Assembly: GCA_025455065.1 (NCBI GenBank)
Contig: JALONG010000005.1
Location: 1-64,000 of the forward strand
Length of the DNA stretch: 64,000 bases
Reading direction: 5' to 3'
Origin: Candidatus Kapaibacterium sp.
GTDB taxonomy: Bacteria; Bacteroidota; Ignavibacteria; Kapaibacteriales; UBA4661
In this document: positions 27,037 through 49,959 of the stretch, in pieces
Layout: every line of letters begins with the position of its first letter
Position numbering within the stretch: the stretch's first letter is position 1
Position numbers and translations under genes: made by a program
Notes under the pieces: generated by a model
The model's input: the letters and a program-made list of their open reading frames with translations, nothing else
Told to the model about the DNA's origin: nothing
The model's database searches: none

Positions 27037-27044
27037 GTTTTTTG

Positions 27045-27116
27045 TGACCCCGGATGGTTTCGAACCATCGGCCCTTTGATTAAAAGTCAAATGCTCTACC
27101 ACTGAGCTACGGGGTC
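27045..27116 (-). tRNA. tRNA-Lys (anticodon TTT)
   Basis: A complete cloverleaf on the minus strand: 7-bp acceptor stem (GACCCCG/CGGGGTC), D arm GCTC...GAGC, anticodon stem TTTGA/TCAAA around the loop CTTTTAA (anticodon TTT), five-base variable loop, and T arm GATGG-TTCGAAA-CCATC. The discriminator base is A. CCA is not encoded, so it must be added afterwards. Confidence 0.97.
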
Positions 27117-46101: not shown

Positions 46102-46138
46102 GAAATTTGATGAGGTATTTTTTTAAAACCTCAAATTT
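46102..46138. terminator. Weak hairpin between NtrC-family gene and purF
   Basis: TGAGGT (46111-46116) pairs with ACCTCA (46128-46133) around an A/T-rich loop, extended by AAATTT on each side with a bulge. Only 36 bases separate the two convergent genes, so a shared terminator is expected here. Confidence 0.4.
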
Positions 46139-47756
46139 AATTCTGCTCCGTCGAAAGTTTACCGCCGCTTGTGTCAATCGGCACGGGATATTTGCCCGTA
46201 AAACACGCCGTGCAGTATTCGGCATCTTGGGGAACGGATGCCAAAAGTTTTTCGACTGACAGATACCGCACAGAATCTGCCTCCACAGCTTTGGCAATTT
46301 CTTCTTCGTTATTGTGATATTGATTAGCGATGAGTTCTTCGCGGTCAGGAAAATCCATGCCGTATTGACAAGGATGCGTTACGGGCGGCGAAGAAATGCG
46401 CAAGTGTACCTCACGAGGACCGGCTTCGCGGACTAAACGCACGATAGAACGAGACGTAGTGCCACGTACAATCGAATCATCAATAAGCACCACTTTCCGA
46501 TTATTCAGCACTCCGCGCACAGTATTAAACTTCGTTTTTACCTTAAACTCACGCTGGTCTTGCCCGGGAGCAATAAAGGTGCGACCAACGTAATGACTGC
46601 GAATCAGTCCAATTTCGTACCGCGTCGGCACACCTTGTTTTGTGGCACTTTGCGCAAAGCCGATAGTAGCTGTGTTTGCGCTGTCCGGCACGGCTATTGC
46701 TCTCACGGGTTCAACGTCGTTATCCGGCAACACGGGGTGTTCTTCCGCAAGTGCCTTACCGAGTTTGCGGCGTACTTTATCCACGTTATGCCCGAAAATA
46801 CGGCTGTCGGGACGGGAAAAATAAATGTACTCAAAAATACAGTGACATGATTTTGGCGTAGTTTTTTCAATCGGAAATGACTTGATTTCTCCTGTTTCCA
46901 CGGTCATGCGGTCAATCATAATAATTTCGTTATGCCCCACTTCCCGCACAAATTCTGCACTGACAATATCCAACGCACACGTTTCCGAAACGACAAAATA
47001 GGCATATTCTTCCTTACCATTCATTTCTACTTTTTTCCGCCCGATGCACAAAGGGCGGAAACCATGCGGGTCTCTGGCAGCATAAAGCGCATTTTCGGTC
47101 AAAACAACGAGTGAATATGCGCCTTTGGCGGTGTGCAGCGATTCGTGAAGTTGCGCAAACTGCGTTTTTGCTTTGCTGCGAGCGATAAGATGCAAAAAAA
47201 GCTCGCTGTCGGTTGTGGTTTGAAAAATCGCACCGTCATTTTGAAGTTGTTCCCGCAAAAGCCGTGTATTGGTCAGGTTTCCATTATGTGCCAAAGCGAT
47301 ATTTCCCGCACGGTACTTAATCCAAAACGGCTGAATGTTCGCAATTTTTGAACTGCCGGTTGTGGAATAGCGATTATGCCCAATGGAAGCCGTTCCCGCC
47401 AAGTGTTCGGTTAAAATTCCCTGCTCCGAAAACACATCCAACACCAACCCCTCATCTTTATGCGCCGTGAAGCGGACTTTGCTATCGTCAAACGTCCGAG
47501 CGGCAACAATTCCTGCGGCTTCCTGACCGCGATGCTGCAAGGCGTGAAGCGCGTAGTACGTCATCAGCGCTGCCTGCGGATGATTAAAAACTCCCACAAC
47601 ACCGCAATTACACTGCGGTTTGTCTAAATTTTCCCGAAAACGCCGTAAAACCTCGGCTGCCGGGGATTCTTGCGAAGGAGAAAATGAGGCGGGATTCGTG
47701 AGATCCAATGGCTCTTCAAAGGGTTTAACGGGAGCAGTAGGGCGCTGCGAAGGCAT
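46137..47756 (-). CDS. purF: Amidophosphoribosyltransferase
   Basis: First committed enzyme of purine synthesis, transferring glutamine-derived ammonia onto PRPP. A 539-residue precursor whose mature N-terminal nucleophile is Cys51 in QCNCGVVGVFN, so a propeptide of about 50 residues would have to be removed; this is long compared with the roughly 11 residues of Bacillus PurF. Cys residues in KSCHCIF, RISSPPVTHPC and YCTAC suggest a Bacillus-type 4Fe-4S cluster. The PRPP-binding loop VVLIDDSIVRGTTS is intact. The start at MPSQRP is chosen because the upstream open frame overlaps dnaX. It follows dnaX by 134 bases and probably shares its transcript. Confidence 0.95.
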   Translation of the reverse strand: MPSQRPTAPVKPFEEPLDLTNPASFSPSQESPAAEVLRRFRENLDKPQCNCGVVGVFNHPQAALMTYYALHALQHRGQEAAGIVAARTFDDSKVRFTAHKDEGLVLDVFSEQGILTEHLAGTASIGHNRYSTTGSSKIANIQPFWIKYRAGNIALAHNGNLTNTRLLREQLQNDGAIFQTTTDSELFLHLIARSKAKTQFAQLHESLHTAKGAYSLVVLTENALYAARDPHGFRPLCIGRKKVEMNGKEEYAYFVVSETCALDIVSAEFVREVGHNEIIMIDRMTVETGEIKSFPIEKTTPKSCHCIFEYIYFSRPDSRIFGHNVDKVRRKLGKALAEEHPVLPDNDVEPVRAIAVPDSANTATIGFAQSATKQGVPTRYEIGLIRSHYVGRTFIAPGQDQREFKVKTKFNTVRGVLNNRKVVLIDDSIVRGTTSRSIVRLVREAGPREVHLRISSPPVTHPCQYGMDFPDREELIANQYHNNEEEIAKAVEADSVRYLSVEKLLASVPQDAEYCTACFTGKYPVPIDTSGGKLSTEQN

Positions 47757-47890
47757 GATGGGTGTGAAAATGATGGTGAAAAATGCGAAGTCATTGCTTG
47801 GAGCGGCTGGTAATTGCAAGACCAAACCACACACAAAATTACGAAAATTGCTTTGGCTGCGATGCAGAATAATTGCCCTACTCACACAAA

Positions 47891-49843
47891 TCACCCCCGA
47901 ATCGGCACGGCGACGGCATCAAACAGTTCTACAATCATTTTGTCTAAATCGGGTAATTCTGCTTTGGGCTGTTGTTGTGCGCTTGGCGCAGCGCTGCTCT
48001 TGTTTTCACTATCGCCATTGGCAAGGGGAAAATCTGTGGGAAATAGTGGGGAAAATTCGTTCAAAGGCTCTTCCGTGCTGAACAGTGAAGCCGTTTTGTC
48101 TTGCGAACCGCCTTGTACGCGCACCCCAACGTCATTGCCAAATGCTGCGGTCAAAATTTGCCGTAGTTGCGCTTGCTTTTCCACGAGTTTATCGGCAACA
48201 AAACCCATTGCACAGTGGAAAATAATCTCACCGTCATTACAACCGGCACGCACCATTTCCGGTTGTTGGATATAGGTTTTAACGGCTGCATCGGTCGTTT
48301 CATCATCGGTAAGCACCTGTAACCAGCGCTGTTGAAGGTCGGCAGCAGAAACAAAACGTTTTGGTGTGGGTTTTCCAACGGTTTCAACAGGATCTCCCAA
48401 CTTCTCCCCAACGTTTTCCACATTTTTGGGGTTTTCCCCAACGTTTTCCACACTTTTTCCCTCAATCTTTTTTCCCTCAACTTCGCTTGCAAAAGGATTT
48501 GCTTGAGGTTGAGAAGTATTATTTGATGGAGCAATATTGTGTTGTTGAGAAATCGAACTATGCGTTTCAGCCTCAAAACCCAGATTTGACACGGTTTGTG
48601 GACGCTCTTGCGGAACTTGGGCAGGAATGATTTTTTGCGGAGTAGGCGCGAAAACCTGACCAATGCTTAGTTCTCCTTGCTCAAGTTTTTTTTTTAGCTC
48701 GGCTAGTTCAGCGAGAAGTTCGGAGATTTGGACTGCGGAATCAAGTTTTGCCATTTGCACCAATGCAAATTCAAAGCGCAACCGAGGCTGCGGAGCAAAG
48801 CGCAACGCCTGTTCGGTGTTCATAATTATCGTCATAAATTGCAGCGTATCGGCTTGCGTAAAGTGCGCAGCTTCGGCGATATACTGTTCGCGGTGAAGTT
48901 TCGAGGCTTCAATGAGTGTGCTGCTCTGCGTCGCCAGCACAGTAAGAATGTTGCGAAAATGCTCCGCAAGCCCGTGCAGACACTCTTGCAAGTCGTAACC
49001 CCGCATAAACACTTCGCGGGCAATGCCTAAAATCGTTGCAACGTCGTGCTGACGAATCGCCCGACCCAAGGTGAAGTAAAATTCGGTGTCAATAAGGTTT
49101 AATGCCTCATTGACGCGGGAATACTCGACATCGCGTCCGCAAAAAGCAATCACTTGGTCGAAAATACTCTGCGAATCACGCATGGAGCCGTCGCCTTTTT
49201 TACCGATAATTGCCAGCGATTCGTCGTCAATCCTTATTCCTTCTTGCGTGGCGATGTGCCTTAGTTGTGCGGCAATTTCGTCAATTTGCATTCGCCGAAA
49301 ATCAAAACGCTGGCAACGGCTTAAAATCGTCGCCGGAACTTTGTGCGGCTCTGTGGTGGCGAAAACAAACAGCAAATGGCGCGGCGGCTCTTCAAGCGTT
49401 TTGAGAAGCGCGTTAAATGCCGATGTGGAAAGCATATGCACCTCGTCAATGATATACATTTTATACTCACCTTTGACAGGCGGATACTTGGCATTTTCGC
49501 GGAGTTTGCGAATATCATCCACGCTGTTGTTCGATGCACCGTCAATTTCAATCACATCTAAGGAGCGCCCCGTGTTGATTTCCACACACGACGGACACGT
49601 GTTACATGGCTCAAAATCTGCTCCGGGATTTTCACAATTCACCGCTTTGGCGAGAATGCGTGCGGTTGTTGTTTTCCCAACACCACGCGGACCATTGAAA
49701 ATATAGGCGTGGTGAATCCGCTTTGATTCCACCGCGTTGCGCAGCGTCCGCGAAACGTGTTCTTGACCAACCACATCGGCAAAGCGCTGTGGTCGCCACT
49801 TGCGGGCTGTAACGATGTACTGTTCTTGAGGTGTGTCGGGCAT
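47891..49843 (-). CDS. dnaX: DNA polymerase III subunits gamma and tau
   Basis: Clamp-loader ATPase and replisome organiser, 650 residues as tau. Walker A GPRGVGKT (51-58), zinc site Cys70, Cys80, Cys83 and Cys86, Walker B IDEVHMLS, and the sensor region FATTEPHKVPATILSRCQRF are all present. Domain III ends near residue 375. An A10 run at codons 383-386 offers a frameshift or transcript-slippage site (separate entry) that would yield a shorter gamma form. The tau-specific part (about 387-650) is Gln/Glu/Pro-rich with three VENVGE-like repeats before a basic, more ordered C-terminal domain. It is followed by purF and preceded by two membrane-protein genes. Confidence 0.95.
   Translation of the reverse strand: MPDTPQEQYIVTARKWRPQRFADVVGQEHVSRTLRNAVESKRIHHAYIFNGPRGVGKTTTARILAKAVNCENPGADFEPCNTCPSCVEINTGRSLDVIEIDGASNNSVDDIRKLRENAKYPPVKGEYKMYIIDEVHMLSTSAFNALLKTLEEPPRHLLFVFATTEPHKVPATILSRCQRFDFRRMQIDEIAAQLRHIATQEGIRIDDESLAIIGKKGDGSMRDSQSIFDQVIAFCGRDVEYSRVNEALNLIDTEFYFTLGRAIRQHDVATILGIAREVFMRGYDLQECLHGLAEHFRNILTVLATQSSTLIEASKLHREQYIAEAAHFTQADTLQFMTIIMNTEQALRFAPQPRLRFEFALVQMAKLDSAVQISELLAELAELKKKLEQGELSIGQVFAPTPQKIIPAQVPQERPQTVSNLGFEAETHSSISQQHNIAPSNNTSQPQANPFASEVEGKKIEGKSVENVGENPKNVENVGEKLGDPVETVGKPTPKRFVSAADLQQRWLQVLTDDETTDAAVKTYIQQPEMVRAGCNDGEIIFHCAMGFVADKLVEKQAQLRQILTAAFGNDVGVRVQGGSQDKTASLFSTEEPLNEFSPLFPTDFPLANGDSENKSSAAPSAQQQPKAELPDLDKMIVELFDAVAVPIRG
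48683..48697 (-). promoter_or_regulatory. A10 slippery site for gamma/tau production in dnaX
   Basis: On the minus strand the codons read CTA AAA AAA AAA CTT (residues 383-387), i.e. ten consecutive A (48695-48686). A -1 shift, or one extra A in the transcript, leads straight to ACT TGA, adding one residue and then stopping, to give a 387-residue product; loss of one A stops after a few codons at TAA. In Thermus thermophilus a similar A9 run produces gamma by transcript slippage, and in E. coli a ribosomal -1 shift does so. Confidence 0.7.
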
Positions 49844-49959
49844 AATTCAAATTCCAAATTTCGGGGAGCAGTAAAGGGTAAATTCAAGTGGTTAATGGAG
49901 GGGTATTCTTGCGGCACAAAATTAGTAAAAAACTCAACGAAGCGTGAGGAAAATGGAGA

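What the first reader, a model, noticed from the sequence alone, without database searches (positions are those of the whole stretch)
48683..48697. A10 slippery run in dnaX with stops in both alternative frames
Codons 383-386 are within ten consecutive A. The -1 frame stops one codon later and the other frame also stops within six codons, right after clamp-loader domain III, which is where gamma ends in other bacteria. This predicts a roughly 387-residue gamma product by transcript slippage or ribosomal frameshift.
Basis: partly seen in the sequence, partly recalled or inferred. Interest (0 to 1): 0.5.

Follow-up and report, generated by a model that had tools for sequence, protein, structure and literature searches.

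The report
Slippery A-run splits dnaX products
A run of ten A's in a DNA-replication gene of an uncultured bacterium very probably lets the cell make a long and a short protein from one gene by miscounting A's, a trick known from Thermus and here seen at the matching place in about half of the related genera examined.

Summary
In detail: A10 lies at 48686-48695 on the coding (minus) strand of dnaX (49843-47891). One extra A gives a 387-residue product, one missing A gives 391, both ending just after clamp-loader domain III.

Alone, the window is unremarkable: resampling its synonymous codons gives an A9+ there 48% of the time. The comparison makes the case. Of 154 dnaX genes of the class, 71 have A9-A11 (10 of 10 in the window's family), at codons 366-395; codons 1-340 have none, those beyond 430 have four. 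None has A8 as longest run there. Resampling predicts 19.6 +/- 3.4 genes, not 71. In 62 of 68 one-ORF genes both other frames stop within 10 codons, against 35 of 249 control positions.

The threshold at nine, stops in both frames, and no clear Shine-Dalgarno-like element or significant hairpin favour RNA-polymerase slippage (as in Thermus thermophilus) over E. coli-type ribosomal frameshifting. Tighter -1 stops and a single detected tRNA-Lys keep the latter possible. No transcript or protein was seen. A new member of a known kind; its breadth is the useful part.

The parts
47891..49843 (-). dnaX: DNA polymerase III clamp-loader subunit tau, 650 aa
   Evidence: (TIGR02397, 465 bits against a cut-off of 250)
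48686..48695 (-). A10 slippery run, codons 383-386 (CTA AAA AAA AAA)
48681..48683 (-). TGA stop used after a +1 A insertion (or a -1 ribosomal shift); product 387 aa
48667..48669 (-). TAA stop used after loss of one A (product 391 aa) or gain of two (392 aa)
48710..49843 (-). Codons 1-378: ATPase domain, lid and domain III, common to tau and the predicted gamma
47891..48457 (-). Tau-only C-terminal region from about residue 463, behind the variable linker; 28-45% identical to 8 family members listed, so kept by selection (inference)

Best explanation
The A10 run is a programmed slippage site that makes dnaX yield two proteins. RNA polymerase slips on the run and makes transcripts with more or fewer than ten A's. 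Transcripts with ten A's (or ten plus a multiple of three) give full-length tau (650 aa, or a lysine or two more); the others meet a stop after one or six codons and give a gamma-like protein of about 387-392 aa that has the clamp-loader domains but lacks the tau C-terminus. Shown: the run, the stops, the conservation, and the excess of runs of nine or more at this place. Inferred: that slippage happens, at what rate, and that the short protein is used in a clamp loader.
For: (1) A10 or A11 at the same codon in 10 of 10 genomes of the family, in phase 2 in nine and phase 0 in one, G008, while the tau C-terminus behind it has diverged to 28-45% identity in the 8 family members listed. (2) 154 dnaX genes: longest A run in codons 345-430 is 2:9, 3:26, 4:19, 5:14, 6:10, 7:5, 8:0, 9:42, 10:26, 11:3. 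A9+ runs: 0 in codons 1-340, 71 in 345-430, 4 beyond. Resampling synonymous codons gives 19.6 +/- 3.4 genes, largest 29 in 300, against 71. (3) Both other frames stop within 10 codons in 62 of 68 one-ORF genes with A9+, against 11 of 83 (after their own longest A run) and 35 of 249 (fixed positions) in genes without A9+, and 24.8% of positions in codons 100-340 of the A9+ genes; by genus 32 of 36 against 7 of 46, Fisher p 1e-11. (4) At least 24 changes of the trait on a quick dnaX tree. (5) Runs of seven and eight in codons 345-430 (17 and 2) just continue the fall-off of shorter runs although seven A's would suffice for a ribosomal A_AAA_AAA shift; in-phase A_AAA_AAG with a -1 stop within 8 codons was found in 1 of 83 genes without A9+, A_AAA_AAN of any kind in 6 of 83. 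(6) A Shine-Dalgarno-like match longer than 4 bases in only 1 of 23 order genes with A9+ (L046). No significant downstream fold in the window (z -1.06; 0.37; 0.07) or in L032, L038, L040 (z -0.17 to 0.78).
Against: No RNA or protein data. Given KKK and AAA-rich codon use, the window's run alone has about 48% chance. The -1 stop is the tighter one (68 of 68 within 10 codons; +1: 62 of 68; medians 2 and 5 in the 55 genes), which would also suit -1 ribosomal frameshifting. Only tRNA-Lys(UUU) was found among 38 tRNAs, as in E. coli; PMC5009743 (section 21) links polymerase slippage in Thermus to two lysine tRNAs, and also says that Chlorobium phaeobacteroides dnaX has potential E. coli-like stimulators (unpublished data of its authors). 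The tRNA list is incomplete, with no tRNA-Ile, so a CUU tRNA may be missed. 83 of 154 genes lack the run, so the short form is not needed throughout the class. In the named loci one gene has A8 as longest run (L124) and five have A7, of 75. An amidase-like gene of the genus has A10 over a conserved KKK in 6 of 8 genomes without steadily close stops, so an A10 can persist within a genus for protein reasons. Downstream folds reached z -2 or lower in 3 of 23 order genes (L034, L036, L050). Six of the 68 one-ORF genes are the short DnaX of family f15, where it is unclear that frame 0 gives a full tau.
Confidence: 0.72

Rival explanations
1. -1 programmed ribosomal frameshifting on A_AAA_AAA makes the same 387-residue gamma, as E. 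coli does on A_AAA_AAG.
For: A slippery heptamer is present in phase; the -1 stop is one codon away and is the tighter stop in the class: 68 of 68 within 10 codons. Only one tRNA-Lys, UUU, was found. PMC5009743 (section 21) mentions potential E. coli-like stimulators in Chlorobium phaeobacteroides dnaX.
Against: No upstream SD-like element and no significant downstream hairpin in the window. Runs of 7-8 A, enough for a ribosomal slip, are not in excess of the fall-off, whereas runs of 9-11 are. +1 stops are also close (62 of 68), which -1 frameshifting does not need. [quoted passage not shown] coli.
Confidence: 0.17
2. Neutral coincidence: a lysine-rich helix end coded with AAA-biased codons; slippage is low and without function.
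For: Given the amino acids the window's run has about 48% chance. A conserved KKK in an amidase-like gene of the same genus also carries A10 in 6 of 8 genomes. A9+ genes are somewhat richer in AT (mean 0.551 against 0.495).
Against: 71 genes observed against 19.6 +/- 3.4 expected; no A8 as longest run in the 154 and no A9+ in codons 1-340 of the same genes. Both-frame stops in 62 of 68 against 35 of 249. Different phases and positions in different families.
Confidence: 0.08
3. A hypermutable tract: the run changes length in the DNA and switches tau on and off between cells (phase variation).
For: A10-A11 tracts are prone to replication slippage (general knowledge); lengths 9, 10 and 11 occur and 3 of 71 genes have tau out of frame.
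Against: 68 of 71 keep frame 0 open past the run; cells without tau should be unfit because tau joins the polymerases (PMC3290774, passage; inference). No read data were available.
Confidence: 0.03

Closest known systems
Thermus thermophilus dnaX transcriptional slippage (A9)
   Same: Tau is one ORF; a run of nine or more A lies after the clamp-loader domains; stops are close in both other frames (as described in passages of PMC1088944 and section 21 of PMC5009743).
   Different: Different phylum; the run here is A10 and lies directly after domain III; slippage is not shown here; one lysine tRNA found instead of two.
Two-ORF dnaX with poly-A, including Chloroherpeton and Chlorobium (Antonov et al. 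2013, PMC3711429)
   Same: Poly-A at the gamma/tau boundary: of 17 such genes 12 have it, nine with ten A and the three named ones with nine, eight and seven (passage); slippage proposed by the authors.
   Different: There gamma is in frame 0 and tau needs the slip; here tau is in frame 0. Three relatives in the survey (G011, G123, G146) have the reversed layout.
Escherichia coli dnaX -1 ribosomal frameshift
   Same: Same outcome: gamma ends one codon after the slip in the -1 frame; one lysine tRNA.
   Different: E. coli uses A_AAA_AAG with an upstream SD element and a downstream stem-loop (PMC3711429 and PMC5009743, passages). The first two are not found here, and no significant stem-loop is predicted.

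Membership tests
Thermus-type dnaX transcriptional slippage | Run of nine or more A inside a single tau ORF | tested here: met
   A10 at 48686-48695
Thermus-type dnaX transcriptional slippage | Nearby stops in both non-zero frames | tested here: met
   1 and 6 codons after the run; class-wide 62 of 68 within 10 codons
Thermus-type dnaX transcriptional slippage | Run placed after the clamp-loader domains and before the tau C-terminus | tested here: met
Thermus-type dnaX transcriptional slippage | Transcripts of mixed run length | not testable with these tools
   no RNA reads
Thermus-type dnaX transcriptional slippage | Two DnaX proteins in about equal amounts | not testable with these tools
   no protein data
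E. coli-type -1 ribosomal frameshift | Heptamer A_AAA_AAG | tested here: not met
   the run is followed by C; A_AAA_AAA only
E. coli-type -1 ribosomal frameshift | Upstream Shine-Dalgarno-like stimulator | tested here: not met
   longest match 3 bases in the 22 bases upstream
E. coli-type -1 ribosomal frameshift | Downstream stem-loop | tested here: inconclusive
   a weak long-range fold, z -1.06, 29 of 200 shuffles as good; z 0.37 and 0.07 with other ends
Two-ORF (Chlorobium-type) dnaX | Frame 0 stops just after the run; tau C-terminus in another frame | tested here: not met
   264 codons open in frame 0 in the window; met in G011, G123 and G146

The most novel reading that the evidence does not exclude
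Making gamma by polymerase slippage on runs of nine or more A is a common and repeatedly gained or lost trait of dnaX throughout this Kapabacteria/Ignavibacteria-like class (71 of 154 genes, 38 of 78 genera, 15 of 26 families; at least 24 changes on the tree), in both layouts (tau in frame 0, or gamma in frame 0). A short clamp-loader subunit would then be under far wider selection than the handful of known cases suggests.
Probability: 0.65. Interest if true: 0.58.

Novelty: new member of a known kind. Interest (0 to 1): 0.45.

Why it matters
A 2012 review (PMC3290774, passages seen) says that bacteria other than enterobacteria and Thermus mostly do not keep frameshift signatures in dnaX and may make no gamma. 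In this class 38 of 78 genera examined keep one. What gamma is for was long disputed (PMC5009743, section 21), so a group in which closely related genera have and lack the signal, and in which the layout sometimes reverses, is a natural experiment. It is also a clean case of selection on run length, with a threshold at nine A.

Tried and rejected
Rejected or led nowhere: Rfam over 47800-49900 gave no match at E up to 1. Looking for a stimulatory stem by folding gave no consistent signal. Ribosomal heptamers as a substitute in genes without A9+: 15 of 83 genes have some in-phase X_XXY_YYZ with a -1 stop within 8 codons, of mixed kinds, so no common alternative. Conservation inside the genus alone was judged too weak, because an amidase-like gene shows A10 persisting over a conserved KKK. 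First statistics on 12 genera of the order were replaced by the class survey.

Rows dropped: L088 (G054, contig end) was left out of the 154. G040, G046 and G050 gave only weak hits to the window protein (best E 1.4e-12, 6.7e-6 and 1.2e-10) and were not fetched. G077, G104, G144 and G160 gave no match at 1e-60, and G092 and G120 were partial and not fetched. One search listed again 16 genomes of the order, the window's own included; they were counted once. One search lost 15 genes by a too narrow motif; they were added back, with a slightly different anchor. Five of 80 named loci had no ORF by my motif (L150, L157, L164, L175, L192). In the region counts one gene (L297) was mis-sliced; one search corrects this, and the counts of runs of four or more in codons 1-340 and of nine or more anywhere are unchanged. 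Counts are per genome and related genomes are not independent; the genus-level test only partly mends that.

Papers: PMC5009743 passages and section 21; PMC3711429, PMC1088944 and PMC3290774 passages only. Larsen et al. 2000 (PNAS) is not held. Searches for this in print. Those for dnaX with Ignavibacteri and frameshift and for dnaX with Kapabacteri returned no paper; the other listings I judged by title and start of abstract. Most subscription journals are not searched.

Full report
What is there. The window carries dnaX on the minus strand, 49843..47891, 650 aa, matching TIGR02397 at 465 bits, Pfam delta-subunit/AAA, lid and domain III models and E. coli DnaX structures. Codons 383-386 are CTA AAA AAA AAA, so ten A lie at 48686-48695. 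Domain III ends at residue 378 by Pfam. One extra A leads to KKKT and a TGA (387 residues); one A fewer leads to KKNLSKEN and a TAA (391 residues).

How unusual the single case is. The run is the only one of ten or more in the window, where A9 words are rarer than in shuffles. The genome has 30 exact A10 runs; seven lie well inside five long sense ORFs, dnaX among them. But if the amino acids are taken as given, codon resampling makes an A9+ in the window's codons 345-430 about 48% of the time. The window alone therefore proves little.

Close relatives. A dnaX-like match was found in 61 of 61 genomes, own included; three (G040, G046, G050) had only weak hits, which leaves 58. In the window's family all ten genomes carry A10 (eight) or A11 (two) at codon 370-371 counted from the RKWRP motif, nine in phase 2 and one in phase 0, with stops after 1-2 codons (-1 frame) and 1-8 codons (+1 frame). 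The tau C-terminus behind it is 28-45% identical to the window's in the eight family members that the cut blastp list shows.

Class survey. I assembled 154 dnaX genes: 57 of the order and 97 of the rest of the class, 78 genera and 26 families. The longest A run in codons 345-430 is 2 (9 genes), 3 (26), 4 (19), 5 (14), 6 (10), 7 (5), 8 (0), 9 (42), 10 (26), 11 (3). All 71 genes with A9+ have it at codons 366-395. Elsewhere run counts fall off steadily: codons 1-340 hold 29 runs of seven, 3 of eight and none of nine; the part beyond codon 430 holds four of nine. Resampling synonymous codons from the rest of each gene gives 19.6 +/- 3.4 genes with A9+, at most 29 in 300 trials. The dearth at eight and the excess at nine to ten is what a threshold for polymerase slippage would give; PMC1088944 (abstract and passages) finds that the length at which selection against such runs shows is nine in a large share of genomes.

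Stops. In 62 of 68 one-ORF genes with A9+ both other frames stop within 10 codons, against 11 of 83 genes without A9+ after their own longest A run, 35 of 249 fixed positions in those genes, and 24.8% of positions in codons 100-340 of the A9+ genes themselves. By genus it is 32 of 36 against 7 of 46. The -1 frame stops within 10 codons in 68 of 68 and the +1 frame in 62 of 68; the six exceptions are G086, G126, G110, G116, G128 and G129. Six of the 68 belong to a family (f15) with short DnaX ORFs, where the status of frame 0 as tau is unclear.

Layout and history. Three genes (G011 in the order, G123 and G146 in f15) have frame 0 closing three codons after the A10; a longer frame follows in the -1 frame (215, 102 and 102 codons) and matches other DnaX C-termini by blastp, weakly (best E 2e-7, 2e-8 and 1e-8). 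That is the layout Antonov et al. 2013 (PMC3711429, passages) reported for Chlorobium and others. On a quick tree of the N-terminal 345 residues the A9+ trait changes at least 24 times; the tree is a short search, some long branches meet in it, and it cannot tell gain from loss.

Mechanism. For polymerase slippage: the run-length threshold, the stops in both frames, the rarity of a Shine-Dalgarno-like element (a match of more than 4 bases in 1 of 23 order genes with A9+) and no significant downstream fold in the window, though 3 of 23 order genes fold at z -2 or lower. For ribosomal slippage: the tighter -1 stops, and tRNA-Lys(UUU) as the only lysine tRNA among the 38 tRNAs found, a list that lacks tRNA-Ile and so is incomplete. 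PMC5009743 (section 21) suggests that two lysine tRNAs may explain why Thermus uses the polymerase; by that argument this genome looks more like E. coli. I weigh the run-length threshold most, and give 0.72 to polymerase slippage and 0.17 to ribosomal frameshifting. The two may also act together.

Who it is. Named records that match loci in contig length are labelled Ignavibacteria bacterium (G005, JAAFIV010000003.1) and Candidatus Kapaibacterium sp. (G013, JALWUI010000191.1), so I infer a Kapabacteria-like order; NCBI places Kapaibacterium in Bacteroidota. Of the 75 named loci with a readable ORF 30 have A9+, one has A8 and five A7 as longest run (counted from its listing); these overlap with the survey. 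Three of the 30 are labelled Lentisphaerae, Pontiellaceae and Kiritimatiellales.

Verdict. A well-supported prediction of a known kind of mechanism in a new group; the broad, repeated occurrence is the part worth following.

Noticed in passing
G000:C51:22774-22900 (L101-L103, L300): An N-acetylmuramoyl-L-alanine amidase-like ORF (my reading of its VIVLDAGHGG motif; no family search was run) has three A10 runs in the linker just before that motif; the last is kept in 6 of 8 genus genomes. Slippage would cut off the catalytic domain, but stop distances vary.
   Followed up: partly
G000:C54:132299-132310 (L104), G000:C66:12951-12962 (L107), G000:C75:18226-18237 (L109): Three more long ORFs with sense A10 runs inside: a GAF-like, a TPR/histidine-kinase-like and a DNA-methyltransferase-like one by eye.
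   Followed up: no
G065, G110, G123, G134, G140, G146, G151, G162 (family f15; L284-L288, L293-L295): A family with short DnaX ORFs, two of them closing just after the run, in which 8 of 8 genomes carry A10 at the site.
   Followed up: partly
L086 (G011): Reversed layout inside the window's order: gamma in frame 0, a 215-codon tail in the -1 frame after A10; an assembly miscount of the run is not excluded.
   Followed up: partly
window 46137-47894, strand -: A PurF-like (amidophosphoribosyltransferase) ORF, by eye, lies directly downstream of dnaX on the same strand and its longest form overlaps the end of dnaX.
   Followed up: no
window 27044-27116, strand -: The only tRNA gene ARAGORN finds in the window is the one tRNA-Lys (UUU) detected in the genome; the 38 tRNAs found include no tRNA-Ile, so the list is incomplete.
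   Followed up: yes
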